Shown here: piece by piece, positions 36,537 through 58,108 of the stretch
Position numbering within the stretch: the first letter of the stretch is position 1
Layout of the letters: each line of letters opens with the position of its first letter
DNA from: an uncultured Bermanella sp.
GTDB lineage: Bacteria; Pseudomonadota; Gammaproteobacteria; Pseudomonadales; Oceanobacteraceae
Length of the DNA: 64,000 bases
Assembly: GCA_913058575.1 (NCBI GenBank)
Contig: CAJXRF010000005.1
Coordinates: forward strand, 52,103 to 116,102
Reading direction: 5' to 3'
The notes under the pieces: model-generated
The model's input: only the letters and a program-made list of their open reading frames with translations
What the model was told of the DNA's origin: nothing
Databases searched by the model: none
Translations under genes and position numbers: made by a program

Positions 36537-39233
36537 CTACTGTATGAAGTTCACCCAAACGCAAAGACCCATTAATTTGGGCTTGGCTGCTTGAAGATAA
36601 GTAGCCGACTCTTTGGCATTTTGGGTAAGGGTGTCTATTTCACTTTGGTAGCTGCCCGCTTCAATTTCCAATGATTTATATCGAGCTAACTCACCTTTTG
36701 TTTTGCTAAGCATTTTTGTAACAGAGTCTTCAATGCTCTCTTTTGATGTGTGAGCTGCAAGCTTCTCACTTAAGCTAACGGCTTTTACAATATCAGGCCA
36801 TTTCATCTTAATGATTTCTTGAGCCATGTCCTTTTTAATAAATTCATTGTTTTCGCGCATGTTAGCAAGGTCAATCACCTTGGTCATATTCTTTAACTCA
36901 TCACTTATGGTGTAGTGACGAGTTTCAGGGGCTAGATAGCGATTAAGCTCTAAGCGCCCAGGGCCATCTGCTTTAATCTGATAAAAGGTTTCTACGAATA
37001 CTTGGCCGTTTTTATATTTTTTATCTTTAAATAAAGAGCAAGATGTGAATGCATTTCCTGAGGCTTCTAGGTCATCTACGATGTCTTTGACCCATGGGTG
37101 ATCCCAAGAGATAAACTCTAAATCTTCCCGTAAAGCAGCTTGTTGGCGATCAAAGGTAATTGTAGCTCGATCGTCTCTTAAGCTATTGATAAACGAAAAA
37201 GGGCAGCTTTCTTGAGGGCTAATAATTATATTGTTAGCACTGGTGGGCTCGGTTTCAATATGGCTATTATCAAATATATTAAGCAGTGAATGCTTAAGTT
37301 CATCTTGTGCATCGTCAGAGGCTTGAATGGCGCTAATTAAGGGCTCTATTCGCTGCTCTGAGAAAGAATGCTGCTCAAGTAATCGATCTCGACCTTGTTC
37401 AATTTCAGTTAAAAGTTGAATGCTGGCTTGCTGGCATTGAGTGATTATGGCTTCAGCTTGATCACCTGTTTCCAGCATCTCGTCAATCTCAATGTTGTAA
37501 GCTTCATAAATAGGCGAAGCTGCCGGGTTAGGTTTGGTGAACATGTCAAAGCCGTGATGATAAAGCGCAGCCATTCTGGATTGCGCGCTTCCTGACTGCA
37601 AAGGCACATGTATATAAATGTCACTGCCTTGACCAATTCTATCTAGGCGTCCTATTCGTTGATCCACTAAATCTGGGTGACTAGGAAGATCAAACAATAC
37701 CAAGTGCTGGGCGTGTTGGAAGTTTCTGCCTTCACCGCCTATTTCGCTGCACACGAGCACTTGAACGCCATCGTCTTCTACAAATTGCGCTGCGATGCGG
37801 TCTCGTTCAATTAGGTCATGGTGTTCATGGAAAGCGCCTGCCAAGATAATGGTTTTAGCATTGATTTGTTCAGTGATTAGTTGAGCATCTTCTGCTGTCT
37901 GGCATATTAAAAGAACTTTCTTATCGGCCTGTTGAGGGAGCCATTCCAATAGCCACTCTAAATTAGTTTGCTCTTTTAAGTGGTAGAACTGGCTGTGGCG
38001 TTCAGGAAAACCCGCGATGCTTCGTCTTGTATTGCGGTAAACCATGCGGCCAGTGCCGTAGCGATCGGCCATCCAATCTATAAATTCATTTTCATCTTGG
38101 TTGTTTGCGATGGTGTCTTCGGCAAATTGCAGTAATTTGTCGTCACCAAGTTTTTCTATTTGAGAAAGAGATGCATCTAGACCATCAAATTCAATAGAAT
38201 CAACTATTTGGCTTACCAATCCATATTGCTGTTCTTCATTTAAAAATTGGTCTAAATTTGAAAAGCGCAGCGGATCTAGCATGTGCAGTCGGGCGAAGTG
38301 GCTTTCTACCCCTAGTTGCTCTGGTGTGGCTGTAAGCAATAGAACCCCGGTGCTGATTTTTGATAGCTCCATGGCACTTTGATAGGCTTTTGACTGCCAT
38401 TGAAGGCGATGACTTTCATCAACTACCATCATATCCCATTGTGTATCTAAGGCTTGATCCATGTATTTACTGTGGGTTAGCCAGTCGAAATTACACAAGG
38501 CCACTTGAATTTGTTCAAAAGGATTATCCCCTTGTTGCTCTGCACAGAATTCATCATCAATCAGTGTGCAGTCGAGATTAAACTTGCGTTTCATTTCAAC
38601 CAGCCATTGGTTGACGAGTGAAGCGGGAACGCAAATTAAAATACGCTGAGCTCTGCCGGTCATAATGAGTTGATGTATGACCAAGCCGGCTTCTATGGTT
38701 TTACCTAGGCCCACTTCATCAGCCAGCAATGCGCGAGGCAAAGGCATTTTGAGTATTTGCTGCGCAACATCATATTGATGAGGAATGATATTAATTTTGG
38801 GGCCGACAAAGCCGTGAGATAACTTCCCCTGATGCTCGATGGAAGACTGTAAAAAATCGCGGTAAAGATTAAACCACTTAAAGCTGCCAATTTGGCCGGC
38901 TTGAAGCCTTTCAAGTGGAGATACCTTGCCTTGATTGTGGGCCAGATCTGTTTCACTTATCCAAGTACTGGGGTTTACTTGGTAAAATAGTATGCCGTTT
39001 CTTTCTTGTGAGTCAGAAATGTTTTCCGATGCACCATTAAGTACCTTTATTCGATCACCTGGGTTAAAGCGGCAGCGTATAAGCGGAGTTGTGCCAATAG
39101 AATATAGTCGGCTGCTTTCTGCATGGGGGAATTCTATGGTTACTCGACGGTACTCGCACTCGCTTACAATACCCAAACCTAGCTCAGGCTCTGCTAAGCT
39201 AATCCAGCGCTGCCCATTTACAAACTGACTCAT
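36537..39233 (-). CDS. rapA: RNA polymerase-associated ATPase RapA (HepA)
   Basis: An 898-residue SWI2/SNF2 protein that recycles RNA polymerase. The N-terminus FVNGQRWISLAEPELGLGIV matches the RapA Tudor-like region. Helicase motifs: ADEVGLGKTIEAGLV (I), VVDESHRL (II), LLLTATPEQL (III), EIGGEGRNFQHAQHLVLFD (V) and DQRIGRLDRIGQ (VI). Somewhat shorter than E. coli RapA (968). Of the two ATGs (39245 and 39233), the second has GGGGGG just upstream and gives MSQFVNGQRW, closer to the family. Confidence 0.94.
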   Translation of the reverse strand: MSQFVNGQRWISLAEPELGLGIVSECEYRRVTIEFPHAESSRLYSIGTTPLIRCRFNPGDRIKVLNGASENISDSQERNGILFYQVNPSTWISETDLAHNQGKVSPLERLQAGQIGSFKWFNLYRDFLQSSIEHQGKLSHGFVGPKINIIPHQYDVAQQILKMPLPRALLADEVGLGKTIEAGLVIHQLIMTGRAQRILICVPASLVNQWLVEMKRKFNLDCTLIDDEFCAEQQGDNPFEQIQVALCNFDWLTHSKYMDQALDTQWDMMVVDESHRLQWQSKAYQSAMELSKISTGVLLLTATPEQLGVESHFARLHMLDPLRFSNLDQFLNEEQQYGLVSQIVDSIEFDGLDASLSQIEKLGDDKLLQFAEDTIANNQDENEFIDWMADRYGTGRMVYRNTRRSIAGFPERHSQFYHLKEQTNLEWLLEWLPQQADKKVLLICQTAEDAQLITEQINAKTIILAGAFHEHHDLIERDRIAAQFVEDDGVQVLVCSEIGGEGRNFQHAQHLVLFDLPSHPDLVDQRIGRLDRIGQGSDIYIHVPLQSGSAQSRMAALYHHGFDMFTKPNPAASPIYEAYNIEIDEMLETGDQAEAIITQCQQASIQLLTEIEQGRDRLLEQHSFSEQRIEPLISAIQASDDAQDELKHSLLNIFDNSHIETEPTSANNIIISPQESCPFSFINSLRDDRATITFDRQQAALREDLEFISWDHPWVKDIVDDLEASGNAFTSCSLFKDKKYKNGQVFVETFYQIKADGPGRLELNRYLAPETRHYTISDELKNMTKVIDLANMRENNEFIKKDMAQEIIKMKWPDIVKAVSLSEKLAAHTSKESIEDSVTKMLSKTKGELARYKSLEIEAGSYQSEIDTLTQNAKESATYLQAAKPKLMGLCVWVNFIQ

Positions 39234-39282
39234 ATATCCCCCCATAATCGAGGGCGGATTTTATCACTTACTGTTACATGTC

Positions 39283-53283: not shown

Positions 53284-54627
53284 ATGGATTTTGATTTATT
53301 TATTATAGGTGCAGGGTCAGCCGGTGTTCGTGCAGGTCGCATGGCAGCAGGAATGGGCAAAAAGGTCGCTGTAGCAGAGTCTCGTTACTTAGGTGGTACC
53401 TGTGTCAATGTTGGCTGTGTGCCTAAAAAACTATTTGTGTACGCCAGTGAATTTCCTCATGTTCAAGCTGAAGCGAAAGGATTTGGGTTGGATATTCAGC
53501 TTAATCAATTCCACTGGCCAACACTTAGAGACAATAAAACAAAAGAGATAGAGCGCCTTAATGGTATCTATAAAAATTTGTTAGATAATTCCGGTGTGAC
53601 TACCCTATGGGGCCACGCCAAATTAGTTGGGCCCAACTCCGTTGAGGTGGATGGCACCGTCTACAGCAGTGAAAAAATATTGCTGGCCACAGGCGGCTGG
53701 CCCACTAAACCGGATATCCCAGGTAAAGAGCATTTACTTACCAGTAATGAACTTTTCTATTTAGATCAATTTCCCGCTTCAGCAGTGGTGATTGGTAGCG
53801 GTTACATTGCAGTTGAATTTGCCGGTATTTTAAATGGATTAGGATGTGACACCCAAATAGCGTCACGCTCCGGAAGACTTCTAAGGGGCTTTGATGAATC
53901 CACTCGCAGCATCGCACAACGGGAGATTCTTAAAAAAGGCTTGAACCTAATCGCTGAACAACCCAGTGCCGTTGTTAAAAATGACAATGGTTTTGAAGTT
54001 CAGTTTGCATCGGGTCTTAAAACGCAAGTTGAGCTTGTGGTATGCGCTACGGGGCGAACTCCTAATATTGAAAACTTGGGCATACAAGAGCAAGGAATTA
54101 GCTTAGACAGTAAAGGTTTCATTGCCGTAAACGAGCAATACCAAACCAATGTTGAAAGCGTTTATGCCATGGGGGACCTGATCGATACAGCGCAGTTAAC
54201 GCCAGTGGCCCTTGAGGAAGCGATGACGTTTTTACGTCAACAATATCAAGGGGATACATCAGCTTTAAACTATGACAATATTCCCACGGCCATTTTCTCT
54301 CAACCTTGTATGGCAACAGTCGGTTTAAGTGAAGAAAGTGCATTGCAAAATGGAATGGATATTGATGTTTACGAAAGTGAATTCAAAGCACTTAAGCATA
54401 CCTTAAGTGGGTCTGATGAACGTACCTATATGAAACTGATCGTTGATAAAAAAACCGATCTTGTTGTGGGCGCTCATATGCTTGGTGAACACGCCAGTGA
54501 AATTCTACAAGGCATTGCCATTGCTATTAAGGCAGGCGCCACAAAAGCTCATTTTGATGCCACTATTGGAATTCACCCAAGTTCGGCTGAAGAATTTGTC
54601 ACCATGAGAACCCCAGTAAAGCGCTAG
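53284..54627 (+). CDS. gor: Glutathione-disulfide reductase
   Basis: A 447-residue flavoenzyme that keeps glutathione reduced with NADPH. FAD motif GAGSAGVRAGRMAA, redox-active GGTCVNVGCVPKK, NADPH-binding GSGYIAVEFAGI followed by SRSGRLLRGFD, second FAD motif YAMGDLID, and C-terminal His-Glu in GIHPSSAEEFVTM. Length matches E. coli Gor (450). The 11-bp gap suggests that it may be co-transcribed with gspM, although the functions are unrelated. Confidence 0.93.
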   Translation: MDFDLFIIGAGSAGVRAGRMAAGMGKKVAVAESRYLGGTCVNVGCVPKKLFVYASEFPHVQAEAKGFGLDIQLNQFHWPTLRDNKTKEIERLNGIYKNLLDNSGVTTLWGHAKLVGPNSVEVDGTVYSSEKILLATGGWPTKPDIPGKEHLLTSNELFYLDQFPASAVVIGSGYIAVEFAGILNGLGCDTQIASRSGRLLRGFDESTRSIAQREILKKGLNLIAEQPSAVVKNDNGFEVQFASGLKTQVELVVCATGRTPNIENLGIQEQGISLDSKGFIAVNEQYQTNVESVYAMGDLIDTAQLTPVALEEAMTFLRQQYQGDTSALNYDNIPTAIFSQPCMATVGLSEESALQNGMDIDVYESEFKALKHTLSGSDERTYMKLIVDKKTDLVVGAHMLGEHASEILQGIAIAIKAGATKAHFDATIGIHPSSAEEFVTMRTPVKR

Positions 54628-54655: not shown

Positions 54656-55507
54656 CTAGGCATTTGACCCTGTAAACATTCTCCAGTCCAATAGTACGCA
54701 AGGAGGCGTGTCTTCCTTGTTTTCTAAATACCCACAAAAAAAGCTAAGGCTGTTTAGTTGTTCATTATCATCTACATCAGCTTGGGTAGTGAAGTCGGCA
54801 ATATTGTAAGTCACAATATCGCTAATAGCGTTTAGACGAACCGCAATCATTTTGTGGCCAGTGTCGATATATAAAAGAATAGGGCGGGTAATATTCTCTA
54901 GGCGATCCCGAGCGGCGCCAAATAAATTAACCAACTTGCCAAATGTTTTACCTCGTTCCATTTCTAATGCCGCAATGGCTTTTTTCACATGACCCTCATC
55001 TCTGAGGGTGATTAACTCATCGGCGAGGGCATGTAGCCTTTTATGTGGTGTATCAAAGTCGTCTAAGATATCGGCTAGTAGTTCATCCTCAGCTTCAAAC
55101 CCCGAGTACCATTTTCCAAACTCGCAAAGGTTAGGGTCTCTGGGATGGTTGAAAGAATCCCCAGAACGAAGGCTGGCTTCTAATGCGCTTAACCAGTCTT
55201 GGTGTTCTTTTTCTTGATCCTTGAGTATCTTAAGCAACGCGATGTTGGCGGTATATTCTGCCTGACAACCCATTAGGTTAGCCAAATCGTAAATAGGAAC
55301 GGGTTTTCCTTGATAACTGGTCACTTCAGCGCCAACCTTTTCATTAACTTCAATACGGGTGGTTTTACGTTTGTCCTGCTCTATATAGCGAACTTCACTC
55401 ACCGGTGTAGCATATTGTGTTGGCCCCACGTAAAAGGTAATGACTTCCAAGGTGTCACCCTGATTAAAAATAGACGTTAATTGCTGTGGTTGTGTAGCGG
55501 CTTCCAT
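54656..55507 (-). CDS. CheW-like protein with an inserted CZB zinc-binding domain
   Basis: A 283-residue cytoplasmic protein. Residues 18-90 look like the first half of a CheW domain (LEVITFYVGPTQYATPVSEVRYIEQ ... GKPVPIYDLANLMG). Residues about 100-165 are a CZB (chemoreceptor zinc-binding) domain, with the expected ligands His102 (EHQDW), Cys128 (DPNLCEFGKWY), His155 and His159 (TPHKRLH). Residues 206-280 resume as the second CheW half (ILLYIDTGHKMIAVRLNAISDIV ... CVLLDWRMF). CZB domains sense zinc or hypochlorous acid. No che gene lies nearby, so it is an orphan adapter or sensor. Confidence 0.85.
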   Translation of the reverse strand: MEAATQPQQLTSIFNQGDTLEVITFYVGPTQYATPVSEVRYIEQDKRKTTRIEVNEKVGAEVTSYQGKPVPIYDLANLMGCQAEYTANIALLKILKDQEKEHQDWLSALEASLRSGDSFNHPRDPNLCEFGKWYSGFEAEDELLADILDDFDTPHKRLHALADELITLRDEGHVKKAIAALEMERGKTFGKLVNLFGAARDRLENITRPILLYIDTGHKMIAVRLNAISDIVTYNIADFTTQADVDDNEQLNSLSFFCGYLENKEDTPPCVLLDWRMFTGSNA

Positions 55508-55556: not shown

Positions 55557-55598
55557 TTATACAATTTCCGATAAATGTTATTATCGGAAATTGTATAA
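55557..55598. repeat. 18-bp perfect inverted repeat
   Basis: TTATACAATTTCCGATAA and its exact complement are separated by 6 bases. It lies 50 bp upstream of the CheW-CZB gene in the 315-bp region before pyrC. There is no T-run beyond it, so it is more likely an operator or a mobile-type palindrome than a terminator. The 13-mer TTATCGGAAATTG from its right arm recurs inside pyrC at 56180-56192. Confidence 0.7.
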
Positions 55599-56860: not shown

Positions 56861-58108
56861 ATGCCAGCCCCCTACTCTCCTATTGCGATTATAGATAATT
56901 TAGATCACTTGCCCGACCCTTTTCGGGAAGGGCCGCAGGATATGGGGGCACTCTTAAAAAATGATGCTCAGCGTTTAGATTTCTATTATGTGCTTAGGTA
57001 TCTATGTAGCTATAAAGGCAGTAGTGCAACATTTAATGCTTATCGCAGGGAAGTAGAGCGCTTACTCCAGTGGCTTTGGCACAATCAAGATATGTCATTG
57101 CTAGATGTACGCCGAGAGCATATCGAGCAATTCATGGAGTTTTGTATAGGGCCGCCTAAGCACTGGATAGGCCTTAAGAACGTTGCCCGATTCAAAAACG
57201 TAAGGGGTGAACGAGTGGCTAATCCAGAGTGGCGGCCTTTTGTGGTGCCTGTTAATAAGGCCTCTGGGTTGCCTCCTAAAATTTCTGACTACAACCCTTC
57301 TCAAAAAGCCATTCAATCTTCTTTTGCTATTCTAAGCTCCTTTTTTAACTTTTTAATTCAAGAAGAGTTTTTAAGCGCTAACCCCGTCGCTTTAGTGCGA
57401 CAAAGAAGCCGTTTTATTCAAAAGGCGCAAAATCGCCCTCAAGTAAGGCGCATCAGTAATTATCAATGGGATGAAGTAATCCGAGTGGCTGAAGACAAAG
57501 CCCAAAATGATCCTCAGCAACATGAAAGAACGGTGTTTATCCTGAACTGCTTGCTTGGCATGTATTTGCGAATATCTGAATTGGTAGCGGATGAACGCTC
57601 TACCCCTGTTATGGGTGATTTTAGAATGGATTCAGACCGTCATTGGTGGTTTCATGTGGTGGGTAAAGGGAATAAGAGCCGTGTTATTACCGTATCGAAT
57701 GACATGTTGGCAGCGCTGCAGCGGTATCGTAACTGGTTAGACTTACCTTCACTTCCCCACCCTGGTGAGCCTACAGCACTCATTACAAAAATACACGGTA
57801 CAGGCCCAGTGACCAGTACTCGGCAAATACGAAACCTGGTGCAGGAGTGTTTTGATGGTGCTTATCAAAATTTGGCTGCTAAGGGTCAAGCAGAAGAAGC
57901 AACCGAGTTAAAAGCCGCTACCGTGCATTGGCTTAGGCATACTGGAATATCGGAAGATGTGAAAATAAGACCAAGAGAACATGTAAAAGAAGATGCTGGG
58001 CACTCAAGCATGGCCACCACTGACAAGTACATAGATAGTGAGCTAAGAGAGCGTCATGCCAGTGCGATTAACAAAAAGATCACGCGCCCCGCTACAGATG
58101 AAACCTAG
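56861..58108 (+). CDS. Tyrosine-type site-specific recombinase
   Basis: A 415-residue integrase. The N-terminal SAM-like domain covers about residues 35-175 (TFNAYRREVERLLQWLWHNQDMSLLDVRREHIEQF). The catalytic domain has Arg in MYLRISELV, Lys in VVGKGNKSR, His-x-x-Arg in HWLRHTG, His in DAGHSSMATT and Tyr in TDKYID, so all catalytic residues are there. It is longer than XerC/D (about 300), with an insertion between Arg and Lys. It starts 3 bp after pyrC, with no attachment repeat, tRNA or phage gene nearby. Confidence 0.9.
   Translation: MPAPYSPIAIIDNLDHLPDPFREGPQDMGALLKNDAQRLDFYYVLRYLCSYKGSSATFNAYRREVERLLQWLWHNQDMSLLDVRREHIEQFMEFCIGPPKHWIGLKNVARFKNVRGERVANPEWRPFVVPVNKASGLPPKISDYNPSQKAIQSSFAILSSFFNFLIQEEFLSANPVALVRQRSRFIQKAQNRPQVRRISNYQWDEVIRVAEDKAQNDPQQHERTVFILNCLLGMYLRISELVADERSTPVMGDFRMDSDRHWWFHVVGKGNKSRVITVSNDMLAALQRYRNWLDLPSLPHPGEPTALITKIHGTGPVTSTRQIRNLVQECFDGAYQNLAAKGQAEEATELKAATVHWLRHTGISEDVKIRPREHVKEDAGHSSMATTDKYIDSELRERHASAINKKITRPATDET

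What the first reader, a model, noticed from the sequence alone, without database searches (positions are those of the whole stretch)
54656..55507. CheW domain split by an inserted CZB zinc sensor
A CZB domain with all four expected ligands (His102, Cys128, His155, His159) sits inside a CheW fold whose halves flank it. Zinc or hypochlorite sensing could thus act directly on chemotaxis array coupling, without a receptor. No che genes lie near, so the partner array is unknown.
Basis: partly seen in the sequence, partly recalled or inferred. Interest (0 to 1): 0.52.

Follow-up and report, generated by a model that had tools for sequence, protein, structure and literature searches.

The report
CheW coupling protein with inserted zinc sensor
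A marine bacterium carries a chemotaxis adaptor protein with a zinc- and oxidant-sensing domain spliced into its middle; the architecture is real and widespread but already catalogued, and the new point is that the gammaproteobacterial branch has lost the salt bridge that ordinary adaptors use to couple receptor to kinase.

Summary
The 283-aa ORF at 54656-55507 (-) is one CheW domain (residues ~18-83 and ~207-276) interrupted by a complete CZB helical domain (84-206) with ligands H102, C128, H155 and H159. CheW-CZB as a class was already named in 2021 (1.4% of CZB proteins); I found no functional study. What I add: (1) the insertion topology is shared by relatives in many phyla; (2) in a Verrucomicrobia contig the gene lies inside a cheA-cheW-MCP-cheR-cheB-cheY operon; (3) the gammaproteobacterial members form one clade (support 100/98) of stand-alone genes that lost the Glu38-Arg62 salt bridge of CheW (0 of 63, against 23 of 35 elsewhere and 6 of 6 ordinary CheW/CheV/PilI); (4) in the window's family presence tracks a second che system (Fisher p 0.001, phylogeny not corrected). 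Most likely it is a zinc/redox-tuned accessory array component; whether it couples or antagonises is open. Separately, the palindrome upstream of the gene is not its operator but a single-copy dif-like site at the replication terminus, near a Xer-like recombinase, in a family without XerD.

The parts
54656..55507 (-). CheW-CZB gene, 283 aa
   Evidence: orthologues 61-73% identical in eight other genomes of the genus; dN/dS ~0.1 or below
55259..55456 (-). CheW first half, residues 18-83
   Evidence: Pfam CheW profile 1-65; model strands 19-74; hhalign to own CheW
54890..55258 (-). inserted CZB helical domain, residues 84-206
   Evidence: Pfam CZB 102-166; helices 84-115, 129-134, 142-149, 152-170, 174-206; Foldseek to 3t9o
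54680..54889 (-). CheW second half, residues 207-276
   Evidence: hhalign, PDB CheW second stretches, spliced Pfam test, model strands 210-273
55202..55204 (-). zinc ligand H102
   Evidence: His in 69 of 70
55124..55126 (-). zinc ligand C128 (CEFGKW motif)
   Evidence: Cys in 69 of 70
55043..55045 (-). zinc ligand H155
   Evidence: 70 of 70
55031..55033 (-). zinc ligand H159
   Evidence: 70 of 70
55385..55387 (-). Tyr41, in the place of E. coli CheW Glu38
   Evidence: 0 of 63 in the gammaproteobacterial set have Glu
55310..55312 (-). Gln66, in the place of E. coli CheW Arg62
   Evidence: Arg in 2 of 63, never paired with Glu38

Best explanation
It is a cytoplasmic CheW-type array protein whose two subdomains are joined through a zinc-binding CZB domain instead of a short loop. 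Shown: one CheW fold split at the inter-subdomain loop; a complete CZB with all ligands; long helices (84-115 and 174-206) running from the CZB into the CheW strands at block-mean pLDDT above 90; strong purifying selection; relatives with the same topology, one of them inside a che operon. Inferred: it docks into chemoreceptor arrays, in this family probably that of the second che system. Zinc occupancy, lowered by zinc depletion or by oxidation of C128, shifts the CZB helices and so the relative position of the two CheW halves, changing kinase control from inside the array. CZB dimerisation would tie two CheW units together. Because the clade lacks the Glu38-Arg62 latch, the protein is more likely an accessory modulator beside the canonical CheW than a replacement for it.
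For: Fold and topology. Ligands. Selection. Same topology in a multi-phylum sister group that keeps Gly57, Arg62 and Arg72 of CheW. Che-operon context in L091 (cheA - this - cheW - MCP - cheR - cheB - cheY) and a cheA ~4 kb away in L116. Co-occurrence with the second CheA in 44 family genomes: 26 of 35 with it have the gene, 1 of 9 without (p 0.001; 23 of 30 against 0 of 6 among genomes at least 90% complete). Zinc and redox sensing by other CZB proteins: PMC8262984, PMC13370339.
Against: In this clade the CheW coupling pair is gone. No gammaproteobacterial locus shows a cheA, cheW, MCP, cheR or cheB within its flank; the only che-type hit there is a weak receiver-domain match in L057. No sigma-28 promoter enrichment upstream. 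Co-occurrence is not corrected for phylogeny, and 9 genomes have the second CheA without the gene. Zinc binding, dimerisation and array binding are untested.
Confidence: 0.5

Rival explanations
1. Array antagonist: it binds receptors or CheA through the CheW fold but cannot transmit, so it competes with true CheW. Zinc state sets how much competes, acting as a gain control on the array.
For: Loss of both Glu38 and Arg62, and mostly of Gly57 and Arg72, in the gammaproteobacterial clade with the fold retained; E. coli R62A binds both partners but does not support chemotaxis; stand-alone genes.
Against: Glu38 mutations reduce receptor binding in E. coli, so array binding itself may be lost; no direct data.
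Confidence: 0.22
2. Repurposed CheW fold: the gammaproteobacterial clade no longer works in chemosensory arrays and carries zinc/redox state to another partner.
For: Coupling residues lost in one clade; neighbours are housekeeping genes that differ between genera.
Against: Presence tracks a che system across family genomes; all 44 genomes encode CheA.
Confidence: 0.2
3. Decaying gene fusion without function.
For: The second CheW half is divergent enough to escape Pfam.
Against: dN/dS ~0.1 or below, ligands nearly invariant, genus-wide orthologues.
Confidence: 0.02

Closest known systems
CheW-CZB class (Perkins et al. 2021, PMC8262984; cited in PMC10653840)
   Same: CheW and CZB in one cytosolic chain; 3His/1Cys site; the residue after the Cys is variable or Ala, as described for this class
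   Different: The passages read give no insertion topology and no function (figures are not held). The clade here lacks the Glu38-Arg62 pair.
E. coli CheW (2ho9, 8c5v)
   Same: Fold and order of both halves
   Different: ~120-residue insert in the inter-subdomain loop; Glu38, Gly57, Arg62 and Arg72 replaced
CZB domains of DgcZ and TlpD/McpA
   Same: Ligand set, C-x-F-G-x-W motif, helical fold
   Different: There the CZB is at an end of the chain next to a GGDEF or receptor domain; here it is inside a fold
CheV and spirochete CheWS
   Same: CheW fused to a second signalling domain
   Different: The fusion is terminal, to a receiver or CheR-like domain

Membership tests
CheW-like domain (PF01584) | two-subdomain CheW fold | tested here: met
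CheW-like domain (PF01584) | Glu38-Arg62 salt bridge (invariant in class F7; Glu not at this position in Thermotoga CheW) | tested here: not met
   Tyr41/Gln66 here; 0 of 63 in the set. It marks class F7 CheW, not the fold family as a whole
CheW-like domain (PF01584) | binds CheA P5 and receptor tip | not testable with these tools
   needs binding assays
CZB (PF13682) | 3His/1Cys ligand set | tested here: met
   H102, C128, H155, H159; all four in 68 of 70
CZB (PF13682) | zinc binding and HOCl- or zinc-dependent signalling | not testable with these tools
   needs purified protein
CheW-CZB class | both domains in one chain | tested here: met
   no long hydrophobic stretch seen in the sequence
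CheW-CZB class | membership of a chemosensory system | tested here: inconclusive
   che operon in L091; only co-occurrence in this family

The most novel reading that the evidence does not exclude
In the gammaproteobacterial clade the inserted CZB has taken over the job of the lost Glu38-Arg62 latch: zinc occupancy itself sets the geometry between receptor- and kinase-binding faces, making the adaptor a metal-gated switch inside the array.
Probability: 0.15. Interest if true: 0.68.

Novelty: new variant of a known kind. Interest (0 to 1): 0.42.

Why it matters
It would place a metal/redox sensor inside the adaptor layer of chemoreceptor arrays, so that one cytosolic protein could tune the output of many receptors at once. 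It also offers a natural experiment on the Glu38-Arg62 salt bridge, held to be essential for E. coli-type CheW function: a large clade has dropped it while carrying an insert in the loop between the subdomains.

Tried and rejected
The first genome-contig scan with the single protein found nothing, so an alignment was used. Sigma-28 promoter search upstream of 32 gammaproteobacterial members: no enrichment (11.58 against 11.47 in controls). Conserved neighbours: gor lies next to the gene in the congeners checked but not in other genera; it is convergent, so no operon is claimed. The palindrome upstream was first taken for an operator and rejected: it occurs about once per genome, with or without the gene, in 40 of 44 family genomes. 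Rfam gave nothing above threshold. Pseudogene rejected by dN/dS. Presence of CheA as such was uninformative, since all 44 genomes have it. Class-wide sampling: 9 of 274 genomes (own included) carry a long CheW-CZB match, so it is rare in the class.

Full report
Observation. The ORF at 54656-55507 (-) encodes 283 aa. Pfam detects the first half of CheW (21-86) and a complete CZB (102-166). Removing the insert extends the CheW match from profile 1-65 to 1-107 and from 33.0 to 42.7 bits. Distant relatives scanned whole show two CheW stretches. A 61-member profile aligns to this genome's own CheW in one hit that jumps the insert and to solved CheW structures in two flanking stretches. The AlphaFold2 model (pLDDT 89.4, pTM 0.80) puts strands 19-74 and 210-273 around a helical insert, and Foldseek matches the first and last parts to CheW across ~260 columns and the insert to the DgcZ CZB.

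Distribution. The family profile found 80 loci in GTDB genomes. Of 70 proteins (own included), 68 keep all four ligands and nearly all keep CheW-length sequence on both sides of the CZB. They come from Gammaproteobacteria, Verrucomicrobiota, Planctomycetota, Nitrospinota, Thermodesulfobacteriota, Bacillota (Acetobacterium), Armatimonadota, Ignavibacteriota and others. The set was gathered with this topology as query, so it does not show that other CheW-CZB topologies are absent. In the window's family 28 of 45 genomes have a long match; in a sample of the class 9 of 274, own included. The window's genus is Bermanella-like, judged from the nearest named contigs.

Two clades. A maximum-likelihood tree of 65 proteins puts the 30 gammaproteobacterial members labelled as such on one side of a branch with support 100/98 (its bootstrap had not fully settled; one further gammaproteobacterial sequence, L111 of Competibacteraceae, falls outside). 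Mapping E. coli CheW positions shows that the multi-phylum group keeps Gly57 (35 of 35), Arg72 (34 of 35), Arg62 (32 of 35) and often Glu38 (23 of 35), while the gammaproteobacterial set has no Glu38-Arg62 pair in 63 sequences (some of these are near-duplicates from two collections, and one, L133, resembles L111 and may belong to the other group). CheW, CheV and PilI of this same genome keep the pair. Ortega et al. (PMC3828127) showed that this salt bridge keeps receptor and kinase sites aligned; R62A binds but does not function. The loss is essentially one event on the tree, so the counts are not independent. A small indel sits just after position 38, but the V-x-E/Y-I and L/Y-R/Q-G contexts fix the alignment.

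Partner. The genome holds a flagellar che cluster (cheY-cheZ-cheA-cheB, ParA-like, CheW), a second cluster (STAS-cheY-cheA-cheW-MCP-cheR-cheD-cheB), a Pil-Chp system, two CheV and 26 MCP matches, one a CZB receptor (gene names by my reading of the sequences). In 44 family genomes CheW-CZB is found in 26 of 35 with the second CheA and in 1 of 9 without. The assignment of CheA types rests on HMM score and frame length, and relatedness is not corrected. In a Verrucomicrobia contig the gene sits between cheA and cheW in a full che operon, which is the best evidence that the architecture belongs to chemosensory systems in general.

Mechanism. Shown: fold, site, selection, context in one distant lineage. 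Inferred: zinc release or C128 oxidation moves the helices that lead straight into both CheW halves. CZB proteins elsewhere respond to HOCl or to zinc depletion (PMC8262984; PMC13370339). Because the latch is missing in this clade I hold an accessory or antagonistic role more likely than plain coupling.

Known or new. CheW-CZB was listed as 1.4% of 10,140 CZB proteins in 2021 and cited in 2023. Library searches found no functional study; figures and most subscription papers were not available. The insertion topology and the loss of the salt bridge in a whole clade were not found described.

Side finding. The inverted repeat 55557-55574/55581-55598 is not tied to this gene's function. Its core TTCCGATAA-N6-TTATCGGAA occurs in 40 of 44 family genomes, once in nearly all of them, with the reversed control matching in one. 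In six single-contig genomes it lies at about 47-51% of the contig, which is the terminus if contigs start at the origin (positions, rounded genome sizes). GC skew in the window falls to about zero near it. XerD reaches its cut-off in 0 of 44 genomes, against 4 of 14 control genomes, and the classical gammaproteobacterial dif is not above control. A 415-aa Xer-like tyrosine recombinase (56861-58108; candidate catalytic residues R237, K269, H356, R359, H381, Y390) lies 1.3 kb away here, and homologues lie next to the site in several other genera. This resembles the single-recombinase dif/XerL system described in Legionellales, which also has perfectly symmetric arms (PMC9765430). It deserves its own study.

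Noticed in passing
55557-55598 and 56861-58108: Single-copy dif-like palindrome (18-bp perfect arms, 6-bp spacer; core TTCCGATAA-N6-TTATCGGAA) with a Xer-like 415-aa tyrosine recombinase 1.3 kb away. The core occurs in 40 of 44 family genomes, near mid-contig in the single-contig ones, while XerD reaches its cut-off in none and classical dif is not above control: probably a single-recombinase chromosome dimer resolution system like XerL of Legionellales, outside that order.
   Followed up: yes
53284-54627: A glutathione reductase gene lies next to the CheW-CZB gene in the congeners checked, tail to tail, but not in other genera; may only reflect genus synteny.
   Followed up: partly
G000 contig C52, 25321-25521 (L126): Second CZB protein of the genome: a soluble TlpD-like chemoreceptor of about 384-405 aa, a possible array neighbour of CheW-CZB.
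   Followed up: no
G000 contigs C36, C110, C80 (L190, L191, L192): Three separate integron integrases (TIGR02249, 368-389 bits) in one genome, plus a similar copy broken into two frames on C152.
   Followed up: no
loci L161-L189: A RapA/HepA-like helicase gene is a frequent neighbour of the dif-like palindrome in other genera of the family; the window has one at 36537-39245.
   Followed up: no
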